Both the position numbers and the translations under genes were made by a program. Below are positions 10,738 through 55,241 of a stretch of 64,000 nt of DNA, piece by piece; within the stretch, counting starts at the first letter, position 1, and each line of letters opens with the position of its first letter. The notes below the pieces were generated by a model. It saw only the letters and a list, made by a program, of their open reading frames with translations, was not told the DNA's origin and did not search any database. Location of the stretch: assembly GCF_000158175.1 (NCBI RefSeq), contig NZ_DS999411.1:1347483-1411482 (forward strand), read 5' to 3'. This stretch comes from Luminiphilus syltensis NOR5-1B. Lineage in GTDB: Bacteria; Pseudomonadota; Gammaproteobacteria; Pseudomonadales; Halieaceae.

Positions 10738-11649
10738 ATGGAAAACGCACGGCCAGAACAGCGACCACAGCAGCAGTCGATGCAGACGAGCCCGGAGAAG
10801 ACCGGATGGCGACGCATTGATGCGCGCCAGATGGTCAAAATCGTCGTTTATGGCTTGCTGCTGATCAACTTTGGTCATTACATCATCAACGACATCACCA
10901 TAGCCGCCCATACGGCTCACTCTGGCTGGACACTGGTCGATTGGACGACTGCCTTCGCCACCACGCTGGATGAGGCGGCCTGGTTCCTGTTGCTGTTTCT
11001 CCTCGAGCTGGAGACCTATCTGCTGGACGATGCGGCGTTTACCCGGGGAAGGGTGATGGTCATGCACGGATTGAGACTGCTGTGCTACCTCGTTATTGGG
11101 CATACGGTGTTTGCCTACGCTGAGTATCTCCTTGACCTCAACAGTGCCACCGAATATGCCGGCGCGGCGTTGTGCGACTTCGTCGAGCAGGGTATTTCAT
11201 TTGCGCGAAACCTCGATTACCGGACGCTGGATCCCACGAATTGCCTGAGCCTTGCCCAGGGCGATGTGCTGTATCAGTTTTCCCAGGGGCAGGCGATCAC
11301 CGATGCCGCAGGCATGCAGGTGGAGTGGGAACTGGCCTGGATCGATCTTTTTGAGGTCGTGGTGTGGCTTCTGATCATGGCTATGATTGAAATAATGGTT
11401 CGCCTACAGGAAAAGCGGATCACCCACGGCCGGCGTCTGGGTGTTGCCCGGTCGGTAAAAGCCGTGCTTTACCTGCTGTTGTGGTCTGCGGCCGCCTACT
11501 GGGCCTATCGTGGCCATTGGCTGTTTGCCTGGGATGAGGCCTTGTGGATTCTTGGCTTTATCGCCATCGACGGCAACCTGAGCGAGTGGCGCGAAGAGAT
11601 TGATGAAGACACCGCAGCGGGTGCGGCCTCTGACGCAAGCGCAGCCTAG
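10738..11649 (+). CDS. Conserved-looking multi-pass membrane protein of unknown function
   Basis: I do not recognise this family. From the ATG at 10738 it encodes 303 aa with a short basic, Gln-rich cytoplasmic N-terminus. About five or six hydrophobic segments follow: residues roughly 35-55, 75-100, 110-130, 195-220 and 235-280. An acidic tail ends in DEDTAAGAAS. Between the third and fourth TM segments is a soluble stretch of about 60 residues. A GTG at 10678 would add 20 residues; GGGGTGA about ten bases before the ATG favours the shorter form. It stands alone, divergent from dabBA, and is followed by a good terminator, so it is likely monocistronic. Confidence 0.65.
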   Translation: MENARPEQRPQQQSMQTSPEKTGWRRIDARQMVKIVVYGLLLINFGHYIINDITIAAHTAHSGWTLVDWTTAFATTLDEAAWFLLLFLLELETYLLDDAAFTRGRVMVMHGLRLLCYLVIGHTVFAYAEYLLDLNSATEYAGAALCDFVEQGISFARNLDYRTLDPTNCLSLAQGDVLYQFSQGQAITDAAGMQVEWELAWIDLFEVVVWLLIMAMIEIMVRLQEKRITHGRRLGVARSVKAVLYLLLWSAAAYWAYRGHWLFAWDEALWILGFIAIDGNLSEWREEIDEDTAAGAASDASAA

Positions 11650-11706
11650 CGCAGCGTCCTGCACTGCCCGCTCGCCCCCGCGTGGAGGCCGAAGAACGGT
11701 GCAGAC

Positions 11707-11730
11707 GGGGGCGAAACGCCCCCTCTTATT
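11707..11730 (+). terminator. Rho-independent terminator after the membrane protein gene
   Basis: GGGGGCG (11707-11713), an AAA loop and CGCCCCC (11717-11723) form a perfect 7-bp stem followed by TCTTATT. It lies about 60 bp after the plus-strand stop at 11649 and before the convergent aldehyde dehydrogenase gene. Confidence 0.7.
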
Positions 11731-11799
11731 AACGTTGATTTTGACATGGATTCCTGGCGCGATGCCCAACCGCCGCCGGAACGGCGACGGTGGCAGAGG

Positions 11800-13293
11800 T
11801 CAGTCGAACTCGATCCAGGTCGTTTTCAGCTCGGTGTAGTCGTCAAACGCATGGATCGACTTGTCGCGGCCGTTGCCACTGAGTTTAAAGCCACCGAAAG
11901 GCACGGTGATATCACCGCCAAAGTAGTTGTTGATACCCATCGTGCCGACACGAACCGCCGCCGCGACCTTGTGCGCGGTGCTGAAGTCCCGGCTCCATAC
12001 AGCGCCCGCCAGACCGTAGATCGAATCATTGGCGATCTGCACCGCGTCATCGGCGTCCTTAAACGGAATTACCGATAGGACGGGTCCGAAAATTTCTTCC
12101 TGCGCGATCTGCATACGGTTGTGTACACCAGAGAAAATCGTCGGTTCATGGAAGGCGCCTCCGGTTTCCTCCAGCGTGGTACTGCCGCCGTAGACCAGCT
12201 CGGCACCTTCAGTCTTTCCGATACCCACATAGTCGGCGACCGAGTCGCACTGACTGCGATCGATCATGGGGCCCATGGTGGTATCGGGATCGAGGGGATC
12301 ACCCGGCGCCCAGTTCGCGGCAGCGGCGATGACCGATTCCAGAAACTGGTCGTGGATCGATTCGTGGACAATAAGCCGGGTGCCCGCCGTGCAAACCTGG
12401 CCGCTGTTGAAGAATACCGCGAGGGCCGCCGCGCTGGCGGCCGCCTCCAGATTGGCATCGGGGAAGACAATATTGGGCCCCTTGCCGCCCAGCTCGAGGA
12501 AGGTCCGTTTGAGGTTTGATTGCCCCGAGCAGGTCATGAGTTGCTGCCCCACCGGTGTTGATCCCGTAAAGGTCATGCCATCAATGTCCATGTGCATACC
12601 CAGATGCTGGCCCAGACTGCCACCCGGACCGGGGAGAACGTGCAGTGCCCCTTTGGGAAGCCCGGCTTCAAATGCCAGATCGGCGATGCGCAGCGCCGAA
12701 AGCGGCGTATTCGAGGCCGGTTTCAGGATCACCGAGTTGCCCGTTGCCAGCGCCGGCGCCAGTTTCCAGGCGGTGGTCGATAGCGGGAAATTCCACGGCA
12801 CGATGGCCGCTACAACGCCCAGTGGAAGGCGAGTGACCAGTGCCAGTGCATCGTGTCCGGTGGGGGATATCTGTTCGTAAATCTTATCGATCGCCTCGCC
12901 GCTCCAGCGAATGGTGCGCACCGCCGATGGCACATCGACATTCACCGTGTCGGAGATGGGCTTGCCGACGTCGATGGTTTCCAGCAAGGCGATTTCCTGG
13001 GCGTGCTTTTCGATCAGCTCCGCCCAGCGCACCAGCACCATTTTTCTATCAGCAGGTGCCATGCCCGACCAGACGCCGCTCTCGAAGGTCTCCCGGGCAA
13101 TTTGTATCGCCCGATCCGCATCTGCGGTACCACAGCTAGCCACTTCAACAATGGGCTGGCCGGTGGCCGGATTGAAGGTGGTTCGGGTCTCGCCGGAGAG
13201 TGCGTCGGTGCGCGCGCCATTGATGACGGCCCGACCATCGATTTGTAGCGCTTGCGCTGCCGCATGCCATTCGGCTTTGCTCATTCCTGTCAT
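11800..13293 (-). CDS. NAD(P)+-dependent aldehyde dehydrogenase
   Basis: The 497-aa product has the full ALDH superfamily layout. Asn168 lies in VPWNFP, the general base Glu267 in LELGGK, and the catalytic Cys301 in FFNSGQVCTAGTR. It oxidises an aldehyde to the acid; overall resemblance is to the betaine/gamma-aminobutyraldehyde/phenylacetaldehyde dehydrogenase group, but the substrate cannot be set from sequence alone. The start at 13293 follows AGGGAGCCCC; an upstream open frame to 13521 has no family similarity and overlaps the divergent GFA gene, so I exclude it. Monocistronic. Confidence 0.92.
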   Translation of the reverse strand: MTGMSKAEWHAAAQALQIDGRAVINGARTDALSGETRTTFNPATGQPIVEVASCGTADADRAIQIARETFESGVWSGMAPADRKMVLVRWAELIEKHAQEIALLETIDVGKPISDTVNVDVPSAVRTIRWSGEAIDKIYEQISPTGHDALALVTRLPLGVVAAIVPWNFPLSTTAWKLAPALATGNSVILKPASNTPLSALRIADLAFEAGLPKGALHVLPGPGGSLGQHLGMHMDIDGMTFTGSTPVGQQLMTCSGQSNLKRTFLELGGKGPNIVFPDANLEAAASAAALAVFFNSGQVCTAGTRLIVHESIHDQFLESVIAAAANWAPGDPLDPDTTMGPMIDRSQCDSVADYVGIGKTEGAELVYGGSTTLEETGGAFHEPTIFSGVHNRMQIAQEEIFGPVLSVIPFKDADDAVQIANDSIYGLAGAVWSRDFSTAHKVAAAVRVGTMGINNYFGGDITVPFGGFKLSGNGRDKSIHAFDDYTELKTTWIEFD

Positions 13294-43592: not shown

Positions 43593-43952
43593 GGGTGTTC
43601 TCCCGATTGGTGTTTTGAACGGACGTATAAAAGGCCCTACGCACAACGTGGAAGTGCCGATCACGCGTATGATCTTATCCGCCTTGGCGACCCGGCGCAC
43701 CCCGTAGATTGAATGGGTGCTTCAGATCCTGATCAAGTGATCGACCGGACGACCCCGTGTCCCAGTGAATGACGGCCATTACCCTCCGCTGTTTCCCTGT
43801 GGGCGCAACTCGTTGGGGACACTGCGTAGGAACATGAAGTCTGTGTGCGGACTCACCTGTGTCCTGAGGAGCGACTGACATTAGCGGAAAATAGTGGGAA
43901 ACTTATCGCTCTGGAAATCCTTCCTTCATTCCGCTTCAGATGGGGCCCGAAT
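43593..43952. other. Divergent intergenic region, HiPIP / outer-membrane protein
   Basis: A 360-bp gap with no supported gene. It must hold the two divergent promoters. I see no clear -10/-35 pairs and no strong repeats. Confidence 0.4.
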
Positions 43953-44777
43953 ATGCACGACGCGTTGACACCAGTAAGGGCCCTTCGTGCCCTTTTGCTC
44001 CCGGCCCTCGTTATTATCCTTTTTCCCTTGGGCGCCTCTGCAGCCGATACTCGTATAGAGCCTGAGTTCAGCGCCGCTGTCGGTTTATTTCTTACCGACC
44101 AGAATAGTAAAACGCGGATAAGCGGTGATGTGGATCCGGGTGATGAAATCGACCTGGAAGCGGACCTCGGTGTTAAAAACTCCGATACCGTGTTTCGCTT
44201 CGACGGCTATTGGCGATTTGCGGAGAACCATCGGGTAGACGTCAGTGTATTTGATCTTTCCCGTTCAAGAAGCAAAGAGTTAGAAAAAGAGTTCACGTGG
44301 CAAGACAAACTCTACACGATCGATACTCAGCTAGACACCGATGTGGATCTCTCTATTTATAAAGTCTCCTACACCTGGCTGTTTATGAAACGGGACTGGG
44401 GTTTTCTGGGTGCAACGGGAGGACTTTACATCGCCGATATTGGTGTCAGGGTTGCCGTCAGGGGATTGGAGGGTGCCGCCGCCGGGGGAGGGGCGACGGC
44501 TCCGTTACCGGTGGGTGGGCTGAGGGGCGCGTATTACCTATCCGATCGCTGGACGTTGCGCGGCGCCGTGGAAATTTTTGCGCTCGAGTACGAGGAGTAC
44601 ACAGGCTCGCTTTCGGATGCTCGCGTGAGCATTGATTACCGGGCAACGGATCGTTTTTCACTAGGGCTGGGCTACAACGCCGTTAATTTCAATATCGGTA
44701 TCGAGCGCGGTAATTTCGACGGCGATTTCGACTGGGGCTACTCTGGCGCCATTGTCTACCTGAAGTTCGACCTGTAA
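43953..44777 (+). CDS. Outer-membrane beta-barrel protein of unknown ligand
   Basis: The 275-aa product has a signal peptide (residues 1-30, ending GASA-ADT) and repeated amphipathic strands with aromatic girdles (FRFDGYWRFA, WGFLGATGGLYIADI, FSLGLGYNAVNF, IVYLKFDL), typical of an 8-10 strand barrel. It ends in Leu, not Phe, which still fits an outer-membrane protein. I cannot assign a family closer than a general porin/OmpW-like group. The ATG at 43953 is used; a longer frame from 43845 would place the signal peptide internally. A PLD-type lipoprotein gene follows after about 150 bp. Confidence 0.7.
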   Translation: MHDALTPVRALRALLLPALVIILFPLGASAADTRIEPEFSAAVGLFLTDQNSKTRISGDVDPGDEIDLEADLGVKNSDTVFRFDGYWRFAENHRVDVSVFDLSRSRSKELEKEFTWQDKLYTIDTQLDTDVDLSIYKVSYTWLFMKRDWGFLGATGGLYIADIGVRVAVRGLEGAAAGGGATAPLPVGGLRGAYYLSDRWTLRGAVEIFALEYEEYTGSLSDARVSIDYRATDRFSLGLGYNAVNFNIGIERGNFDGDFDWGYSGAIVYLKFDL

Positions 44778-46513: not shown

Positions 46514-46993
46514 TCAGTCGGTAGCGTCGGGTATTTCACTGTAATGCAGGCTGATGATCTTCCATTCCCCGTCAATTTTCTGCCAAACATCGGTTTCGAA
46601 CGCACGGGCCTCCGAAATTTCGCCGTCTGGGTAGCGTGTGCGATTATCGATGAACGAAGTGGCAACGGCGACGTCGCCGCTGGGCATGATCTGGACCACC
46701 AGATCGGATACCTCATTTTTGTCTACGCCACCGCCGGCGCCTATCATTTCTTTCCAGAACTGTTGATACTCCGCCATATCCTGACGCGCGCCGAAGAAAT
46801 AAACCGTAGCGTTTTCAGCGTAGAGACCGAAGTAGGTATCGGGGTCATTGGTAGAATAAGACTCGTCGAAGGCCGCAATGGCCGCATACAGATCGGCGTG
46901 CTCGTCGCCGTGGTGTTCGGCGCAGACAGCAAAAGGTAGCATGACCAAGAACAGACAGGACACGGCTTTGCCGATGAATGCAAATAACTTCAT
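46514..46993 (-). CDS. Secreted NTF2/SnoaL-like protein
   Basis: The 159-aa protein has a signal peptide (about residues 1-25) and a cone-shaped NTF2-like domain with the DUF4440/SnoaL pattern (AFDESYSTNDPDTYFGLYAENATV, then VAVATSFIDNRTRYPDG and WKIISLHYSEIP). Such domains bind small molecules or mediate enzyme activity, and no active-site residues stand out. AGGA precedes the ATG. It is likely periplasmic and single-gene; the next minus-strand gene ahead of it is the mscS-like gene, about 140 bp away. Function unknown. Confidence 0.78.
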   Translation of the reverse strand: MKLFAFIGKAVSCLFLVMLPFAVCAEHHGDEHADLYAAIAAFDESYSTNDPDTYFGLYAENATVYFFGARQDMAEYQQFWKEMIGAGGGVDKNEVSDLVVQIMPSGDVAVATSFIDNRTRYPDGEISEARAFETDVWQKIDGEWKIISLHYSEIPDATD

Positions 46994-47131: not shown

Positions 47132-47947
47132 TCATAATCGACTGGGTCGCTCAATCCCGGCTTCGATAAATAACTTCGAAACCCGACGTGTAATGTCCGT
47201 GAGAAACGGCTTCTCGTAATCCACATCGAGAACGTAGGCTCTTGCTCTCAGCCGTATGGCGATTCGCTCGGCAATCTCTACCTCTTCAACAATAAATTTG
47301 ATGGGTTTCTTCAGGTAGGTGAAACGACTGGTCACGATCACCTGCTGCAGGATCTCCTCAGCCTTATCGACGTCAGCATCGAGCGCGAGGTGGAAGTCCG
47401 CCGTGACCATCATGTCCATCGCCCCCATGTTTCCAGACGAGACGATATCGGTAATAAAGCTGGAATTGGGAATTGTGACCGTATTGTCGTCGAGTGTTTG
47501 TAAACGAACCGATCGCAATGTGATGGCGGTAATGGTGCCGTAGGTTTCACCATAGGTCACCCGATCGCCCACCTGAAAAGGCCGTTCGAATAGCAACAGA
47601 ATACCGGCGACCAGAGAGGACGCGATATCCTTTAACGCAAAACCAATCGCGACCGCCGCGGAGCCGGCGATGGCAAGCAAAAATTCTCTCGGGGGCTGTA
47701 GTACGGCGACGATGAGCACAATGACACCGCCGATGTAAAGAATGAAAGAGGTCAGAGTGACAAATTGAAGGATGATAAAACGGCGAGAAGGCAAGCGCTT
47801 CATCACGCCCTCAGCGAGTTGCCGCAGTATCCAGTTTGCAGCCCAGATGCCAAGAATGCCGATGAACAGCGCGAGTAACTTGCCGCCCTCCAGCATATCG
47901 GCAACCATAGAAAGCTCGCCCATCAGTGCTGACGCCTCTTCATTCAT
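47132..47947 (-). CDS. Small MscS-family mechanosensitive channel
   Basis: The 271-aa protein has TM1-TM3 (about residues 24-44, 57-82, 88-121) with the pore-lining helix AGSAAVAIGFALKDIASSL and the beta-domain signature ERPFQVGD that follows it. Length is near E. coli MscS (286). It would form a heptameric channel opened by membrane tension. Its ATG at 47947 lies inside the end of the upstream ATPase gene, an 8-bp overlap that couples their translation. I therefore suspect the channel acts as the output of, or is gated with, the ATPase; this is inference. A longer start at 48004 would extend the overlap and adds no similarity. Confidence 0.92.
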   Translation of the reverse strand: MNEEASALMGELSMVADMLEGGKLLALFIGILGIWAANWILRQLAEGVMKRLPSRRFIILQFVTLTSFILYIGGVIVLIVAVLQPPREFLLAIAGSAAVAIGFALKDIASSLVAGILLLFERPFQVGDRVTYGETYGTITAITLRSVRLQTLDDNTVTIPNSSFITDIVSSGNMGAMDMMVTADFHLALDADVDKAEEILQQVIVTSRFTYLKKPIKFIVEEVEIAERIAIRLRARAYVLDVDYEKPFLTDITRRVSKLFIEAGIERPSRL

Positions 47948-50807
47948 GGAGCAGATTCTTCCGTGCGAGTAGTCGTGTAATCGGGTAATACCACATGGGC
48001 TCAATTCGATATCGTCGGTCTACGCTGCGACGAATGAATCCCAGCTCAAATCCTTTGCGCAGTGCTGAGCGGACCTGACTTTCCGGAATGGCGGTACTCT
48101 CGACCAACTCAGTAGTACTCAGGTTTTCGTGAATAAGGAGTGCCGCGTAGACGAAGAAGCGATCCTCTCCCAGTCGCTCAAGAGCGGCGGCATTGGTCTC
48201 TTCCGGGAGCCCGACGTTGACTGCCCCGGGCCGGACTACCAGCGAACTCAGCCAGAGCTCAAGTGCGAGCCCCGGACAACCCTTGCAGGCATCCCAGAGC
48301 AGGCTGAAGTAGAGTTGTTCGGCGTTACGCAGACTTCCAGCTTCGGGTCCACGTGTAGACAGTAAAATCTGATCATAGGTGATTTTGTAGCCACTGAGTT
48401 GGTTGCGCGAGAGAATCAGTGAGCGAATGTCACCCTGACTCCAGCGAGGACATTGCAGCAAAATATTGAACTGATGGTAGCGACCGAATACGTTGGCCAG
48501 GTAAGCCCAGCTTTGGCTATCGATCGATACGACCCAAAAGACATTGCGCAGCCGCGATCGGGTAAGCGTGAGCAGGAATTCCCACCCGGCAAGTCCGCCC
48601 ACTGAACGGAGAAAGAGATTCTGGGCGTTGTCGATCATCACCACCGTTGTCGGTCTGTCTTCATCTGAGCGAACGAGTTCGGAGGGTCCATCTGCCAGCG
48701 ATACGCCAAGCAAAGGCTCGAGCAGTGCTGCCAGCTGTGCTTTTGTATTGGTCTTCGCTGGAACATCAACGTGTATCAGCGCAATATCCGCATCGGCGCC
48801 CTGGCTCGCAACCCTCAGCAGTGAGCTGGTTTTGCCAGCACCGCGTTCGCCATACAGCAACAAGGTATTTTCTTCGGAGCGTTCGGCCAACCAGTCGCTG
48901 ATATGCTTCTGAAGTCGATCGGCCAGTTCATTGCGAATAAAGGGAGTTTCCCGGTTTTCGCTGGTGCGAAACCATTGCTGATAGTCGTTAAAGGCCTTCT
49001 CATCAGAGACCTTGTCGGCGATGCCTTCCTGTACTGTGGAACGCAGCAGGAAGCTGCGAGCCATTAAGCGGCGGTACCAGTCAAAGTGAACGAATAGCTT
49101 GTGCAGGAAAGAAAGAAGCGTCATCAGCACCAGTAATGGCGCGCTTAGCGGAGCCAGTATCAGAAAGCGAAAACCTCTGAATATACGTTCGCAAGTGGCA
49201 TTGAGCCTCTCTGGCAGGAAATACTCCAATGCTTTCACGAACTCGGTTTCCCAGGGTTTCAGGAGCACTCCAAAAGCGATCAACAGCGTTACCAGGCTGA
49301 CGATGTCGAGCAGTCTCAGGGTCAGGGACGGGCCAATAATCAGATCGTATACGACCTCTGTAAACAGGGGCAGCAAAACGATGAGCGTCGCATTGGAGGC
49401 GCCACGCCATATGGCTTTTTGCTGTTCGTCCTGTAAGTAGACCCCGGCCAGTTCGGTCATGCGTTGCAAAAACCAAACGCCGCAGAGACGCAAAAAACCG
49501 TAAAGCACGAAGAGCTTTGCCAGCGGCAAAATGGGCAGTAGCAGAAACAGCTTGTTGTCTATCAGTATTTGTTCGAGCAGATCCAGCCCAAACCAGCCGA
49601 TGATCCAGGGCAGCCACCGCGGTAGTCCGCTGGTCAGGCGTACGATCTGGATTCGATTGCGATTGCCGCGGGAATGCAATGCAAATCGTTGCTGCCAGGC
49701 CTCTCCCATAGTCTGGCTGCGGTTTGCAACCAACGCCAGAACGGCGAAAGCACCCAAGCCCAGTAAGTATTCGATACCCAGAAGAATTCGCCACAGCAGG
49801 GCGTCTTCACGATGCTGTGTGCTGAATTGTCCGGCAAGTGTATTCAGGTAAAGCCAGTGAACCCCATTTTTCATTGCCAGTGCTTCATCGCCAAGCATTT
49901 GGGCTCGGTCTTCAAGGCGCGGCAAGACCTTCAAGAAATCTTTTCGATGCTCTGTCCACAAATGAGCTCGGATGCGATTGAAGACGATCGCTACTTTACC
50001 TGCGGTGAGTGCAAGCAGCTTGAAGTGATTCTGAAGATCGAATTGAGACTGAGGGCTCAGTTGCTCCAGGGTATCTTCCCTTGCTTCCAAAGAAGCGACC
50101 AGGGCAACAGCCTCACGCCACCGGTTGAGCCAGGTTTGAATTTCGGCGGAGGAAATGTCTGCATCCAATGTTGGAAGCAAGGTGGCATAGGCCGAGCGCA
50201 GCTTGTCCAACTCGGCTAATGAGTTCTCCAACGCGCCATCAGCCGGTGTTCCTCTGCTCATGGCCGAAGAGGTCGAAAAGCTTTCGCGCAGTGTTTGGAA
50301 CGCTCCCAGGATATCGCGCAATCCCTGACGTGCCACTTCGGGCAGCGCGACCCAGTAATTTTGCTGAAGCACCTCGAGTTCAACCAGATTCGCTTCGACA
50401 TTCCCTCGGGCCGCGGTGTAGTCGGCTCTTAGTTCCCCGCAGGCAAGGCTTTCCGGCCAGGAGCGCATAGACTCTTCAGCCGCCGTAAGATCTGAATCCA
50501 GCACATCGATGACATCGCTCAACGCGAAATCCCGATGCTGCTCACCCGCCATAACCGCCTTAATCTGGTTGAGGGTAGTGTCCAATTTTTCAGCGCGCCG
50601 TTGCGCTTTTGACAGTAGAACCGCCTCGTCCTGACACAATCCTCCCGCGGCGGCGGACTCCTGGGCAGACGCGCTCTGGCTTATCGTCAATAACAAGCAG
50701 GTTCCAAAAACCAACGAGCTGAGCAGCGCTCCCCATCGTCTCAATGGGTGCGGACTATTGTTAAGGAGCACCCCTGTGTGTGCGATGCTGCTGTTAGGTA
50801 ATGCCAT
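47940..50807 (-). CDS. Membrane protein with periplasmic helical domain, TM bundle, P-loop NTPase and winged helix
   Basis: The 955-aa protein is not one I can name. It has a signal or first TM (about 27-47) and a periplasmic, helix-rich region (50-335), like that of large MscK-type channels. About six TM segments follow between 337 and 570. A cytosolic P-loop NTPase has Walker A GERGAGKT (653-660) and a Walker B-like TVVMIDNAQN (721-730, the acidic residue after Asp replaced by Asn). A winged-helix-like C-terminus (about 884-930) is last. The NTPase resembles AAA/STAND-type domains. Its stop overlaps the start of the mscS-like gene. The Asn in Walker B may weaken hydrolysis. Likely a stress-sensing ATPase tied to the channel; mechanism unknown. 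Confidence 0.8.
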   Translation of the reverse strand: MALPNSSIAHTGVLLNNSPHPLRRWGALLSSLVFGTCLLLTISQSASAQESAAAGGLCQDEAVLLSKAQRRAEKLDTTLNQIKAVMAGEQHRDFALSDVIDVLDSDLTAAEESMRSWPESLACGELRADYTAARGNVEANLVELEVLQQNYWVALPEVARQGLRDILGAFQTLRESFSTSSAMSRGTPADGALENSLAELDKLRSAYATLLPTLDADISSAEIQTWLNRWREAVALVASLEAREDTLEQLSPQSQFDLQNHFKLLALTAGKVAIVFNRIRAHLWTEHRKDFLKVLPRLEDRAQMLGDEALAMKNGVHWLYLNTLAGQFSTQHREDALLWRILLGIEYLLGLGAFAVLALVANRSQTMGEAWQQRFALHSRGNRNRIQIVRLTSGLPRWLPWIIGWFGLDLLEQILIDNKLFLLLPILPLAKLFVLYGFLRLCGVWFLQRMTELAGVYLQDEQQKAIWRGASNATLIVLLPLFTEVVYDLIIGPSLTLRLLDIVSLVTLLIAFGVLLKPWETEFVKALEYFLPERLNATCERIFRGFRFLILAPLSAPLLVLMTLLSFLHKLFVHFDWYRRLMARSFLLRSTVQEGIADKVSDEKAFNDYQQWFRTSENRETPFIRNELADRLQKHISDWLAERSEENTLLLYGERGAGKTSSLLRVASQGADADIALIHVDVPAKTNTKAQLAALLEPLLGVSLADGPSELVRSDEDRPTTVVMIDNAQNLFLRSVGGLAGWEFLLTLTRSRLRNVFWVVSIDSQSWAYLANVFGRYHQFNILLQCPRWSQGDIRSLILSRNQLSGYKITYDQILLSTRGPEAGSLRNAEQLYFSLLWDACKGCPGLALELWLSSLVVRPGAVNVGLPEETNAAALERLGEDRFFVYAALLIHENLSTTELVESTAIPESQVRSALRKGFELGFIRRSVDRRYRIEPMWYYPITRLLARKNLLHE

Positions 50808-51379
50808 GATAAGAGGCAGAAATGCCAGTCTCCCTAAACCTAGTCACGCGAGCCGAATCATTTACTGATTTCAACAAAGTTTATCAGCGCAAAGCATAAA
50901 CCCAATGGATTGTTTCGATAAGAGTTCCAAGGTCCCCGGGACGTTGCTGGGTTCAGACCGCGTTCGGCAGCAGAACAGCGGTGATGACGACCGTCGAACA
51001 TCGGTAGAGGCTGTTACGGTCAAGTAATGACAGATGCAGATTTTTAGTCATCTCATTGAGTTTACGGAGTCTTTTCCAGTAAGTTGATACGTTTCCAGTG
51101 TACTACCAAGTGCGCGTATGTACCCTTGCGCCCACCGGCTTTATCGATAACGTTCTCGCAGTAGCCACCGATATAAATCAGAAATGCCTTGGGTGGGGCG
51201 AATGTTAGCGATTCAGGATCTTATTTCTGGGATTGCAGGACTGCTATCTCAGCGAAACTTTGGAAGACTCATGCATAATGGGTAGAGCTGGGAGCATTGT
51301 AATTGAGAGCAGTATTAACATGTCGCGGTCAAACGGCGGGTCCGCGCATCATCGGTTAGATCATTACTGGAGTACCCCA
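50808..51379. other. 572-bp divergent intergenic region
   Basis: This long gap separates the membrane ATPase (minus) from yjgR (plus). I see no supported gene; one minus frame of about 50 codons around 51070-51220 without a start codon is the best coding-like hint. The GGAG at 51369-51372 serves yjgR. No clear promoter or repeat was found. Confidence 0.35.
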
Positions 51380-52843
51380 ATGGAAAAAGGCCTTCTTATC
51401 GGTGGTTCGGATGCAGGGCAGGTTTTTCTCAATCCGCGTTATGCCAATCGGCACGGTCTGGTCGCCGGTGCCACGGGCACCGGAAAGACGGTGACCCTGC
51501 AATGTCTGGCGGAGGGCTTCTCCGATCTCGGCGTCCCCGTGTTTCTGGCGGACGTGAAAGGCGATATTTCCGGAATCAGTCAATCGGGTAAGCCACACAA
51601 GAAGATTGATGAGCGGGTGCAGAATATCGGTATTGAAGGTTATAGCCAGCGCGGTTATCCGGTTGCCTTTTGGGATGTCTTTGGGAAGAAGGGCACGCCT
51701 GTGCGCTCGACGATTTCGGAAATGGGGCCGCAGTTACTGTCGCGGCTGCTCGATTTGAACGAGACCCAGGAAAGTGTGATTAATCTGGTATTCGAGTTCG
51801 CCGACAACGAGGGCATGCTGCTGGTCGATCTCGCCGACCTGCGCACAACACTCGACTATCTGGGTGAACACAGCAAAGAGCTGGGTTCTGGTTACGGCGT
51901 TTCCAAGGCATCGATCAATGCGATTTTGCGGCGCCTGCTGATGCTCGAGCGCGAGGGGGGCAAACAGTTCTTCGGTGAACCTGCCCTGGAGCTTGAAGAT
52001 TTCATGCAGGTGAGCCGCGATGGTCGCGGTGTCATCAATGTACTCGCGGCCGATCAGCTCATTATGAGCCCCCGCGTTTATTCCACATTTTTATTATGGT
52101 TACTTTCCGAGCTGTTTGAAAATCTACCCGAGTTGGGAGATCCGGAGCAGCCCGTTGTCGTGTTTTTCTTTGATGAGGCCCATTTATTATTCAAGGATGC
52201 GCCAAAACACCTACTCGAGAAAATTGAGCAGGTAGTCCGGTTGATACGGTCAAAGGGCGTGGGAGTGTACTTCATCTCCCAGAGCCCGGCAGATATTCCC
52301 GACGCTGTTCTGGGTCAGTTGGGCAACCGGGTCCAGCATGCGCTTCGTGCTTACACGCCAAAGGAACAGAAGGCGGTCAAGGTCGCAGCGCAATCGTTCC
52401 GGGCTAATCCCAAACTCGATACGGTCACCGCGATCACTGAGCTGGCGGTTGGCGAAGCCCTGGTGTCGATGTTGCAAGATAAAGGTATTCCTTCAGTGGT
52501 GGAGCGGGTTCTGATTCGCCCGCCGCATTCACGTATGGGCAAGGCGACCATGGAGGAGCGCAAGGCCCTGATGGATCGTGATATCAACCAGCGCCGTTAC
52601 GGTGAATCGATCGACCCCCGGTCGGCTCATGAGGTCTTGCTTGAGCGTATGGCGGCGAGGCTGAAGGCGCAGGAGGAGGCATCCCTTGCCGAGCGCGCTG
52701 CCAAAACACAGGGTAAAAAGAAATCGCCGGGTCGAGGTCGCGAAAGTGCGGGTGAGGCATTCGTCAAAAGTCTCGCGCGCGCCGCCGGCAGCAGTCTGGG
52801 GCGCAAACTGTTTCGCGGTTTGATGGGGTCCCTACTCAAATAG
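51380..52843 (+). CDS. yjgR: HerA-type P-loop ATPase of the YjgR/DUF853 family
   Basis: The 488-aa protein is a HerA/FtsK-like ATPase with Walker A GATGTGKT at residues 30-37 and a Walker B FFFDEAHLLF. The N-terminal layout (GSDAGQVFLNPRYANRHGLVAG) agrees with E. coli YjgR (about 500 aa), whose role is unclear. I set the start at 51380, where GGAG lies seven bases upstream; frames reaching 51233 or 51320 are not needed. The C-terminal 60 residues are basic with Lys/Arg and small residues. No NurA nuclease partner is encoded, so double-strand break resection as in archaeal HerA is not implied. Confidence 0.88.
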   Translation: MEKGLLIGGSDAGQVFLNPRYANRHGLVAGATGTGKTVTLQCLAEGFSDLGVPVFLADVKGDISGISQSGKPHKKIDERVQNIGIEGYSQRGYPVAFWDVFGKKGTPVRSTISEMGPQLLSRLLDLNETQESVINLVFEFADNEGMLLVDLADLRTTLDYLGEHSKELGSGYGVSKASINAILRRLLMLEREGGKQFFGEPALELEDFMQVSRDGRGVINVLAADQLIMSPRVYSTFLLWLLSELFENLPELGDPEQPVVVFFFDEAHLLFKDAPKHLLEKIEQVVRLIRSKGVGVYFISQSPADIPDAVLGQLGNRVQHALRAYTPKEQKAVKVAAQSFRANPKLDTVTAITELAVGEALVSMLQDKGIPSVVERVLIRPPHSRMGKATMEERKALMDRDINQRRYGESIDPRSAHEVLLERMAARLKAQEEASLAERAAKTQGKKKSPGRGRESAGEAFVKSLARAAGSSLGRKLFRGLMGSLLK

Positions 52844-52973
52844 CTAACCCTCGATCGATTGCCGGATCATCAGTGCTTGCCCGCGGCCCCCAGTGTTGAA
52901 AACTACCGATGGATTGGGCGGGTAACTGGGCTAGGATAACTTCACCTTCTTCTCAATATTGAGCTTGCAGCGG

Positions 52974-55241
52974 ATGCGCATAATTCTCTCATCGATGCTG
53001 ACCACCTGTTGGCTTTTCACTGTTGCCGCTAACGCCTGGGGACAGTTTTCCCCGGTGCAGGGTTTTCCGGCTGAGATAAAGCCCATCGTCGAGCAGCGTT
53101 GTGTGGTGTGTCACGGTTGTTATGACGCCCCTTGCCAGTTGAAGCTGGATGCCTGGCCGGGTCTGGAGCGCGGTGCCAGCAAGAGCAAAGTCTACGATGG
53201 TACCCGGCTGCGCCCTGCTGAACTGACACGACTTTTTGAAGACGCCCACAGCATTGAAGAATGGCGCAGCAAGGGGTTCTACCCCGTGCTCGATGACAAT
53301 GACCCGACTCAGGGGACGATGTTCAAAATGCTGCAGTTGAAGCAGGATTTTCCATTACCCCGGAAAGGGCGACTGCCCGATACGTTTGATTTCAGTCTCG
53401 ACCGTGATCAGAGCTGCCCAAAGCCCGATGAATTTTCCGGGTATCGAGAGCAGCGGCCCTATCAGGGCATGCCATTTGGTTTTCCTGGCCTGGATGACGA
53501 GCGCCTCGACACACTGACTCGCTGGCTGAAGGCGGGTGCACCCGGTGTCAGCGTGCCGGCGGTGCCGGATTCAGAGCGCGCCACTGTTCGCAATTGGGAG
53601 CAATTTCTCAATGCGCCGGACAATAAGACCCGGCTCATGAGCCGCTATGTTTACGAGCATCTGTTCATTGGTGATTTGCATTTCGATACGCTCGAGCAGC
53701 CCTCGGGTTGGTACAAACTGGTGCGCTCGCGGACCCCCCCCGGGGAGCCTGTAGATCTGATCGCGTCGCGAAGGCCCTATGATGATCCGGGCGTGGAGCA
53801 TTTTTATTATCGATTGCAGCTCCGGCATATGACGCGTCTGGCCAAGCGGCATATGCCCTATGCGCTGAATCCGGCGCGCCAGGCGCGCTGGACCGCGCTA
53901 TTCCTCGAGCCCGATTACAGCGTGGATACCCTTCCGGGGTACGGGGAAAAAACGACCTCCAATCCTTTCATTACCTTTCAGCAACTGCCTGTAGATACCC
54001 GTTATCGCTTCATGCTGGATGAGGCGCACTTCACCATCATGGCCTATATCAAAGGGCCGGTTTGTCGGGGGCAGGTAGCGCTCAACGTGATTGATGACCA
54101 TTTCTGGGTGGCCTTTGTACAGCCGGATCAACGTGATCCGGATCAACAGGCGTCGTTTTTGGCATCCCAGGCTGATCGTATGCGCCTGCCGCAGGCGAAG
54201 AAGAGCCTGCTTATGACGGCGCTGCGCTGGCGAAGCTATGCCAAAAGTCAGCGGCGTTATTTGGAAGCGAGGGCAGAGGCGATTGCCAAGGTGGTCGACG
54301 CTGATCAGATCAAGCTGGATATGGATCTGATCTGGAACGGCGGCGCCGAGCAAAACGAAAACGCGGCACTCACAGTGTTTCGCCACTTTGACAGCGCGTC
54401 GGTGGTAAAGGGGTTTGTTGGCCAGCAACCGAAAACCATGTGGGTGATCGATTATTCGTTACTCGAGCGCATACACTATCTTCTGGTTGCGGATTTTGAT
54501 GTCTATGGTGCGGTCGGACATCAACTCGAAAGCCGCCTCTACATGGACTTTTTGCGTATGGAGGGCGAGCAGGGTTTTCTTATGCTTTTGCCCAAAGCCG
54601 ATCGCGATGCCCTGCGGAACTACTGGTATCGGGGTGCGGAGTCTGAAGCCCGGGCGTATATCCTGTCGCCCAGGCATGGCGAGTTCGAGCGAGAGTCCGA
54701 TATCGCTTTTAGCAGCGATGACACCAAGGCGGAGTTGATGGGGTTATTCGAGAATCATATTCCGGCGGCTGATGCATCGCGCTACGCCGTCACGGAATCG
54801 TCGTTGCTATCGTTGATGGAGGGTCCCAGTTCAGTCTTCCACTATCTGCCGCAGACCTCCTTTGTTCAGGTTCTAAAGCCAGACGGCGCGCGCGAAACCT
54901 ATACTCTGCTGACAAACAGTGCCCACAGTAATATTGCGCAACTCTTCGCCGAGGAGGAACGACGATTACCTGAGGAGGATACGCTGACTGTGGCCCGTGG
55001 GTTTATCGGCGCTTACCCGAATATGTTCTTCCAGATCACGCAGGGTCAATTGGAGGCATTCGCCCAGGCGATTCAAAACCTCGATAGTGACGATGATTAT
55101 CAGCGGTTTTTGGAGCGTTACGGCGAGCGCCGCACCGTGCCCTGGTTCTGGAAACTGAGCGACGATCTTTATGAGGAGTATCGTCGGGCCCAGCCGATTG
55201 AGGCGGGTCTTTTTGATCTCAATCGGTATGAAAATCGTTGA
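52974..55241 (+). CDS. cti: Fatty acid cis/trans isomerase
   Basis: The 755-aa protein is Cti, a periplasmic haem protein that turns cis double bonds of membrane lipids to trans without new synthesis, stiffening membranes under solvent or heat stress. It has a signal peptide (about residues 1-22) and the haem-binding CxxCH at Cys43/Cys46/His47 (RCVVCHGC), close to the N-terminus as in Pseudomonas Cti. Length agrees with known members (about 760). An in-frame TTG at 52959 is an alternative start. The perfect palindrome CTCAATATTGAG (52952-52963) just upstream may be part of the promoter or leader. Apparently monocistronic. Confidence 0.93.
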   Translation: MRIILSSMLTTCWLFTVAANAWGQFSPVQGFPAEIKPIVEQRCVVCHGCYDAPCQLKLDAWPGLERGASKSKVYDGTRLRPAELTRLFEDAHSIEEWRSKGFYPVLDDNDPTQGTMFKMLQLKQDFPLPRKGRLPDTFDFSLDRDQSCPKPDEFSGYREQRPYQGMPFGFPGLDDERLDTLTRWLKAGAPGVSVPAVPDSERATVRNWEQFLNAPDNKTRLMSRYVYEHLFIGDLHFDTLEQPSGWYKLVRSRTPPGEPVDLIASRRPYDDPGVEHFYYRLQLRHMTRLAKRHMPYALNPARQARWTALFLEPDYSVDTLPGYGEKTTSNPFITFQQLPVDTRYRFMLDEAHFTIMAYIKGPVCRGQVALNVIDDHFWVAFVQPDQRDPDQQASFLASQADRMRLPQAKKSLLMTALRWRSYAKSQRRYLEARAEAIAKVVDADQIKLDMDLIWNGGAEQNENAALTVFRHFDSASVVKGFVGQQPKTMWVIDYSLLERIHYLLVADFDVYGAVGHQLESRLYMDFLRMEGEQGFLMLLPKADRDALRNYWYRGAESEARAYILSPRHGEFERESDIAFSSDDTKAELMGLFENHIPAADASRYAVTESSLLSLMEGPSSVFHYLPQTSFVQVLKPDGARETYTLLTNSAHSNIAQLFAEEERRLPEEDTLTVARGFIGAYPNMFFQITQGQLEAFAQAIQNLDSDDDYQRFLERYGERRTVPWFWKLSDDLYEEYRRAQPIEAGLFDLNRYENR

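What the first reader, a model, noticed from the sequence alone, without database searches (positions are those of the whole stretch)
47132..50807. Two-gene module: membrane P-loop NTPase with periplasmic sensor-like domain, overlapping an MscS channel gene
The 955-aa protein joins a periplasmic helical region (about 50-335), a bundle of about six TM segments (337-570), a P-loop NTPase (Walker A 653-660, Walker B-like 721-730 ending in Asp-Asn) and a winged-helix-like end. Its stop codon overlaps the start of an intact small MscS gene by 8 bp. MscK-type large channels have a similar periplasmic and multi-TM region in one chain; here that region is separate from the pore and carries an ATPase. 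This suggests ATP-dependent or sensor-controlled gating of a mechanosensitive channel, which I do not recognise as a described system.
Basis: partly seen in the sequence, partly recalled or inferred. Interest (0 to 1): 0.75.

Follow-up and report, generated by a model that had tools for sequence, protein, structure and literature searches.

The report
AAA+ partner protein of MscS channels
A gene for an ATPase-like protein, often with a membrane-embedded sensor part, sits directly in front of a gene for a small pressure-relief channel; the pair recurs in widely different bacteria, so the protein is probably a dedicated control subunit of the channel, even though many copies have lost a key ATP-binding residue.

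Summary
In detail: a 955-aa protein (signal-peptide-like start, periplasmic part, multi-TM bundle, AAA+ domain, winged helix) whose stop overlaps an intact mscS start by 8 bp. The pairing is not accidental. In 77 of 77 genomes or plasmid records where a homologue of the ATPase half was read, mscS follows directly; 0 of 35 other AAA loci had one. From the channel side, 7 of 7 module-type MscS genes have the partner, 0 of 28 ordinary ones do. The module spans 17 families (Gamma- and Alphaproteobacteria) in soluble (392-791 aa) and membrane forms. The membrane form's TM bundle resembles the accessory TM region of MscK/MscM (best hhalign comparisons 83-92%, 51 control membrane sequences or families at most 1.5%; weak for subgroups taken alone): perhaps MscK's sensor half cut from its pore and joined to a Cdc6/STAND-type AAA+ domain. 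ATP hydrolysis cannot be the conserved job: the P-loop lysine is missing in 18 of 29 modules (at least three changes on the channel tree), and the window's Walker B reads Asp-Asn. Best reading: a dedicated regulatory subunit of an MscS channel, nucleotide-switched in some lineages, a pseudo-ATPase in others. My searches found no published description. Binding and gating are inferred.

The parts
47940..50807 (-). 955-aa AAA+ partner protein (membrane form)
50664..50807 (-). signal-peptide-like N-terminus, residues 1-48 (hydrophobic 25-43, then SASA-QE)
   Evidence: hydropathy; sequence; cleavage is inferred
49800..50663 (-). presumed periplasmic helical region, residues 49-336; no Pfam family above cut-off
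   Evidence: low-confidence model; location inferred from signal-like start
49098..49799 (-). multi-TM bundle, residues 337-570, resembling the accessory TM region of MscK/MscM
48363..48938 (-). AAA+ core, about residues 624-815
   Evidence: Pfam AAA_22, AF2 model, Foldseek Orc1/Cdc6 and CED-4
48828..48851 (-). Walker A GERGAGKT, residues 653-660 (lysine kept here)
48627..48647 (-). Walker B TVVMIDN, residues 721-727 (Asp-Asn: second acidic residue absent)
47982..48152 (-). winged helix, residues 886-942
   Evidence: sub-threshold TrmB match, AF2 model
47940..47947 (-). 8-bp overlap of partner stop and mscS ATG, the same in G165, G355 and G592
47132..47947 (-). small MscS-type channel, 271 aa
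47225..47242 (-). RAYVLD in the MscS C-terminal domain; pattern [KRV][AVP]Y[VP]xD marks module MscS
   Evidence: 7 of 7 module MscS, 0 of 28 ordinary MscS (pattern was derived from module sequences)

Best explanation
The module is a two-subunit channel system. The small MscS protein forms the usual heptameric pore. The partner is its dedicated regulatory subunit: a Cdc6/STAND-type AAA+ domain with a winged helix, encoded just before the channel and probably translationally coupled to it, that docks on the channel's cytoplasmic side. In the membrane form found here it also carries a periplasmic helical domain and a TM bundle probably homologous to the accessory part of MscK/MscM, as if a large MscS-type channel had been split into a sensor-plus-switch protein and a separate pore. 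A periplasmic, membrane or cytoplasmic signal sets the AAA+ domain, and its state allows or restrains opening. In lineages with an intact P-loop, such as the window's, nucleotide binding with little or no hydrolysis is the likely switch; elsewhere the same subunit works as a pseudo-ATPase. Shown by computation: linkage, domain make-up, missing catalytic residues in many members. Suggested by computation: similarity to the MscK/MscM TM region. Inferred: physical contact, docking site, effect on gating, nature of the signal.
For: ATPase side: 77 of 77 homologues read are followed directly by mscS (24; 3 plasmid records; 50 further genomes of one genus), against 0 of 35 other AAA loci read. Channel side: 7 of 7 module-type MscS have the partner, 0 of 28 ordinary MscS read do, 5 paralogues of the same genome among them. 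Spread: 15 families in whole genomes plus two alphaproteobacterial families on plasmids. Partner and MscS distances correlate (r 0.957 for 29 pairs, 0.892 for 19 less redundant pairs, 0 of 10,000 permutations as high in each). TM bundle: E. coli MscK first among 17 E. coli proteins (83-86%), MscM-type profile 91.5%, 20 block-shuffled versions at most 7.5%, 51 other TM-rich sequences or families at most 1.5%. AAA+ plus winged helix. P-loop lysine missing in 18 of 29, at least 3 changes on the MscS tree. Module MscS share a C-terminal-domain signature absent from 28 ordinary MscS.
Against: No direct evidence of binding or gating; conserved operons can also pair an assembly factor with its client. 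The distance correlation may only reflect the species tree. The TM similarity depends on the mixed profile of 19 sequences: with subgroups alone it is 5-16% (three long gammaproteobacterial sequences) or under 5% (g305-type, alphaproteobacterial), a three-sequence MscK profile gives 45%, single MscM 25-37%, YbiO 1.6%; leaving the three long sequences out lowers MscM to 44.6% and MscK to 5.7%; another group of MscS proteins (c800) scores 88% and one more (c1000) 7%. One of the 24 class/phylum homologues, G400, has an E-value (5.7e-7) within the range of the dropped AAA matches and was kept for its coverage of the C-terminal half; without it the counts are 76 of 76 and 1 of 36. AAA+ rings are usually hexameric and MscS is heptameric (recalled), so a simple ring-on-ring model does not fit.
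Confidence: 0.65

Rival explanations
1. ATP-driven gating: the partner hydrolyses ATP to open or close the channel.
For: P-loop lysine present in the window and 10 other modules; AAA+ fold.
Against: P-loop lysine missing in 18 of 29 modules and in all 55 P-loops readable in 56 g305 loci; Asp-Glu in Walker B occurs in only 2 of 29 (G165, G592); the window has Asp-Asn.
Confidence: 0.1
2. Assembly, insertion or quality-control factor for the MscS protein, not a gating subunit.
For: Gene order partner-then-channel with overlap or short gap in the 27 modules measured fits co-translational assembly; AAA+ proteins are often remodellers (recalled).
Against: Ordinary MscS need no such neighbour: 28 of 28 read here lack it. 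A periplasmic part and an MscK/MscM-like TM bundle are odd for a chaperone, and loss of the P-loop argues against a remodelling motor.
Confidence: 0.15
3. Membrane-anchored or soluble transcription regulator of the channel gene, acting through the winged helix.
For: TrmB-like winged helix; Orc- and MalT-complex structural neighbours.
Against: It lies upstream in the same coding unit with 8-bp overlap or short gap, and the AAA+ plus winged helix layout is standard in Cdc6/STAND proteins whether or not they bind DNA (recalled).
Confidence: 0.06
4. Anti-phage or stress-suicide pair: a STAND-type sensor that opens a channel to depolarise the cell.
For: STAND-like fold with CED-4 and Avs4 among neighbours; a membrane-depolarising defence effector is known (Cam1, title of PMC10808066 in the listing). 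The module is patchy: 58 of 99 genomes of one genus, 1 of 31 in the window's genus, 3 plasmids.
Against: No PADLOC match for the window pair; of 10 relatives' proteins 3 show only weak matches around the P-loop. No match to the window protein among 50,697 phage records, none in two pattern-based IMG/VR scans that reach close relatives only.
Confidence: 0.06

Closest known systems
MscK / MscM (YjeP), large MscS-superfamily channels of E. coli
   Same: Large N-terminal periplasmic domain, extra TM helices and an MscS core; profile similarity of the TM bundle. MscK: about 500-aa periplasmic domain and 11 TM helices (PMC9653487, passages seen).
   Different: There sensor and pore are one chain with no AAA+ domain; here the pore is a separate small MscS and the sensor half ends in an AAA+ plus winged-helix domain.
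KtrAB / TrkH-TrkA potassium channels
   Same: Ion channel with a separately encoded cytosolic nucleotide-binding regulatory subunit; TrkA closes TrkH with ADP and opens it with ATP (PMC6987127, abstract start seen; KtrAB in PMC4714889, abstract start, same call).
   Different: RCK domains, potassium channel, no sensor TM bundle (partly recalled). Likeness in working principle only; no homology claimed.
ExeA/GspA-type AAA_22 ATPases
   Same: AAA_22 is the Pfam domain matched here. A protein that I recognise from memory as ExeA/GspA-type gave a partial match to the A1 profile in G408.
   Different: That match covers 84 of 1062 profile positions. None of the 35 other AAA loci read has mscS beside it. 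I did not test such proteins for a winged helix.
Orc1/Cdc6 and STAND (CED-4, MalT) switch ATPases
   Same: AAA+ core, helical lid and winged helix; Foldseek matches 2v1u E 8.4e-9 and 4m9s E 8.6e-8.
   Different: TM-scores at most 0.50 among the 50 rows listed, on a model of pLDDT 62; no membrane part and no channel partner (recalled); P-loop often lost here.

Membership tests
MscS superfamily (window 47132-47947) | MscS beta domain (PF00924) and pore region | tested here: met
   E 6.6e-20; PDB MscS/MscK matches over residues 25-268
MscS superfamily (window 47132-47947) | tension-gated channel activity | not testable with these tools
   needs electrophysiology
MscK/MscM-type large channel (for the 955-aa protein) | accessory TM region upstream of the pore | tested here: inconclusive
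   83-92% in the best comparisons against controls of 7.5% or less, but 5-45% with other profiles or subgroups
MscK/MscM-type large channel (for the 955-aa protein) | MscS core in the same chain | tested here: not met
   no MscS domain in the 955 aa; it is the next gene
Catalytically active AAA+ ATPase | Walker A GxxxxGK[ST] | tested here: met
   met in the window; lysine missing in 18 of 29 family members
Catalytically active AAA+ ATPase | Walker B hhhhDE with catalytic Glu | tested here: not met
   VVMIDN in the window
STAND / Cdc6-type AAA+ | AAA+ core followed by winged helix | tested here: met
   (model of modest confidence)
Known anti-phage defence systems (PADLOC 2.0.0) | match to a defence model beyond the P-loop | tested here: not met
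KtrA/TrkA (RCK) regulatory subunits | RCK/TrkA_N domain | tested here: not met
   no such Pfam match among families listed to E 1

The most novel reading that the evidence does not exclude
MscS-superfamily channels exist that have a separately encoded, obligate AAA+/STAND-type gating subunit, so some bacterial osmotic valves are two-component and signal- or nucleotide-gated. In the membrane form this is an MscK-like channel split into a sensor/switch protein and a pore; in several lineages the switch has become a pseudo-ATPase.
Probability: 0.45. Interest if true: 0.85.

Novelty: new variant of a known kind. Interest (0 to 1): 0.68.

Why it matters
As far as I recall, MscS channels are regarded as self-contained, tension-gated valves; the literature searches made here turned up no separately encoded control subunit. 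A conserved partner would show that some are regulated by a second protein, give a natural experiment on how a sensor can be detached from its pore (the MscK/MscM accessory part as a separate chain), and make testable how turgor valves can be tied to energy state or an envelope signal. Loss of the P-loop in several lineages with retention of the partnership also makes this a good family for studying pseudo-ATPase regulators.

Tried and rejected
Pfam, NCBIfam and PADLOC: AAA_22 in most partners tested (AAA_16 too in one), nothing else above a cut-off that names the family. PDB by sequence: no match to E 1. Relatives of the window: 1 of 38 genomes, the window's own; within the genus, 31 genomes, only the window's has the module-type MscS, the others giving matches of at most 35% identity or none. 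Two genome-contig scans: nothing, then only the two long homologues already found. Rows dropped before the counts: G194 (residues 185-247 only, 41%, a probable helical chance match) and G408 (partial AAA match, ExeA/GspA-like). AlphaFold2 of residues 1-600: pLDDT 43, not used for a fold search. Motor-type gating rejected as the shared mechanism because the P-loop is often lost. Promoter and terminator scan: below the shuffled mean for both. Conserved third gene: apart from partner and MscS, protein clusters are shared by at most six of the loci compared. Module GC 0.539 against window 0.568 (sd of 3.7-kb windows 0.017): slightly low, not decisive for recent gain. Literature: ten searches, eight aimed at such a pair and two at comparison systems; only listings with abstract starts were seen, and no listed title or abstract start names an ATPase-MscS pair. 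PMC9035990 was checked by passages and has the two terms in different elements; PMC12375004 and PMC8775919 by passages, nothing on such a pair. Subscription journals and preprints are not covered.

Limits: most homologues come from genomes without names, so organisms cannot be given. That the window is gammaproteobacterial follows from G165 (same class), whose contig agrees in length and match with JAKFXL010000076.1, titled Gammaproteobacteria bacterium. Searches listed more weak matches than were fetched; at most 30 loci per call were read, with flanks of up to 1.5 kb. Searches looked at the same 369 genomes. The control consists mostly of single sequences (44 of the 51).
Full report
Observation. 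Pfam recognises AAA_22 at 644-750 (E 2.6e-8) and, just under cut-off, a TrmB-like winged helix at 886-942; nothing in residues 1-600 reaches a cut-off. The MscS gene is a normal member of its superfamily. No PDB sequence matches the 955-aa protein up to E 1.

Is the pairing real? The first search with the full protein matched 1 of 38 close relatives (the window itself) and 8 of 369 genomes of the class. The two long homologues (G165, G355) are followed by mscS with the same 8-bp overlap, and the four weak ATPase-only matches (G243, G138, G118, G301) also had an mscS beside them. The eighth match, G194, covers only a helical stretch and was dropped. A profile of seven ATPase halves (A3) was then run on the same 369 class genomes and on 398 phylum genomes. 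Of the 59 loci fetched there, 24 carry a homologue: 23 at E 1.1e-29 or better, plus the diverged G400 (5.7e-7), kept because it covers the C-terminal half (positions 144-366) rather than the P-loop region. All 24 have mscS directly downstream on the same strand; none of the other 35 AAA loci does. If G400 is set aside as a weak match, this reads 23 of 23 and 1 of 36. Three plasmid records (Caulobacter sp. NIBR2454; Novosphingobium pentaromativorans US6-1; Novosphingobium sp. PP1Y) add 3 of 3. In the genus of G581 ('g305'), 58 of 99 genomes have the partner; mscS lies beside it in 56 of 56 loci newly read, and the other two genomes (G641, G626) were read before. Four of the 58 have a partner gene in broken frames, and in one of them mscS is split too. 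Taking out the 8 genomes counted twice gives 77 of 77.

Reverse test. A profile of seven module MscS (A4) was run on 185 class genomes and on the window's own genome. Listed scores fall into two groups: 426-181 bits (7 loci) and 117 bits or less. All 7 high-scoring loci have the partner; the two most diverged (G164, G075) were found only this way. Of the 28 ordinary MscS loci read, including the 5 other MscS genes of the window's genome, none has it within the flanks. With these two, 79 modules are known here. The 26 whole genomes analysed in detail fall in 15 families, plus Sphingomonadaceae and Caulobacteraceae from the plasmids.

Anatomy across the family (29 modules). Gene order is always partner then mscS; in the 27 measured, the likely mscS start lies between an 8-bp overlap and a gap of about 20 nt. 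Ten partners (392-791 aa) have no TM segment before the ATPase half; the other 19 (670-1143 aa) have 3-7, in most a signal-like first one. On the MscS tree these two classes need a single change (a quick tree with some long branches). The P-loop lysine is present in 11 and missing in 18: replaced by R, L, I, V, T, S or A in 15, with no recognisable P-loop in G400, G164 and G075. The tree needs at least three changes of this state; if the lysine is ancestral these are losses. In the g305 loci it is absent in all 55 P-loops that the pattern could read, of 56 loci. Walker B reads Asp-Glu in only 2 of 29 (G165, G592). The window keeps the lysine but has Asp-Asn.

Fold. The 590-955 model (pLDDT 62.5) has the AAA+ core, lid and winged helix; Foldseek puts Orc1/Cdc6 first, then CED-4, with RuvB, a MalT complex and Avs4 further down. 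TM-scores are 0.50 or less, so this supports the class of fold, not a close relationship.

Relation to MscK/MscM. A profile of the pre-ATPase parts of the 19 membrane forms was compared with 17 E. coli proteins: MscK came first (83-86%, over MscK 508-664, the extra TM region), MscM second (25-37%); everything else, YbiO and reversed MscK, MscM and LacY included, gave at most 1.8%. A nine-sequence MscM-type profile gave 91.5% over 191 columns; its reverse gave 4.6% and 20 block-shuffled versions at most 7.5%. Of 52 TM-rich families or single sequences from all fetched loci, one is a broken copy of the partner itself; the other 51 (44 of them single sequences) score at most 1.5%. Against: a three-sequence MscK profile gave 45%, over 34 columns only; the three long gammaproteobacterial sequences alone gave 5-16%, the g305-type and alphaproteobacterial groups alone under 5%; leaving out the three long sequences lowered MscM to 44.6% and MscK to 5.7%; without the g305 genus and G561 the best match moves to the periplasmic part (96%, helical, possibly a coiled-coil artefact); and two other groups of large MscS proteins scored 88% and 7%. 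I read this as probable homology with the accessory TM bundle of large MscS channels, formally inconclusive.

Co-inheritance. Partner and MscS distances correlate at r 0.957 (29 pairs) and 0.892 (19 less redundant pairs), 0 of 10,000 permutations as high; the species tree alone could give this.

How it most likely works. A partner tied to one channel type, encoded just before it and not seen without it in the loci read, is best explained as a dedicated subunit of that channel. The MscK/MscM-like bundle suggests that the membrane form supplies the sensor part which large channels carry in the same chain, while the AAA+/winged-helix part sits on the cytoplasmic side as a switch. Since catalytic residues are missing in many members while the pairing stays, the conserved job cannot be ATP hydrolysis; nucleotide binding may be the switch where the P-loop is intact. 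Contact, docking and effect on gating are inferences. Nearest in working principle are KtrAB and TrkH-TrkA, where a cytosolic nucleotide-binding subunit regulates a channel (abstract starts); nearest in build is MscK (passages).

Novelty. No NCBIfam model reaches its cut-off on the partner, eight literature searches aimed at such a pair listed none, and the annotated plasmid copies are called only 'ATP-binding protein' and 'AAA family ATPase'. I file it as a new variant of a known kind: an MscS-superfamily channel with a detached sensor/switch subunit.

Noticed in passing
L087 (Caulobacter plasmid pNIBR24541) 6190-8033: Two mscS genes in tandem follow the partner; the second matches the module MscS profile only weakly (26 bits).
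   Followed up: partly
L091 (G483) 11114-12984: Two further MscS-type genes lie about 1-4 kb downstream of the module.
   Followed up: no
L198, L199, L200, L201: Four of 58 genomes of one genus have a partner gene in broken frames, and in L200 the mscS is split too; could be decay or assembly error.
   Followed up: no
window 51233-55241: A HerA_C-type ATPase gene and a fatty acid cis/trans isomerase (CTI) gene, read divergently from the module; CTI is a membrane-stress enzyme (recalled), the link is unexplored.
   Followed up: no
window 46514-46993: A DUF4440/SnoaL-like gene with a signal-like start lies downstream of mscS on the same strand, 138 nt away.
   Followed up: no
window 43845-44777: 310-aa ORF with no Pfam match, perhaps an outer-membrane barrel (impression from sequence only).
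   Followed up: no
window genome, genus of 31 genomes: Only the window's genome has the module-type MscS; the module's GC is 1.7 sd below the window mean, so recent gain or wide loss are both possible.
   Followed up: partly
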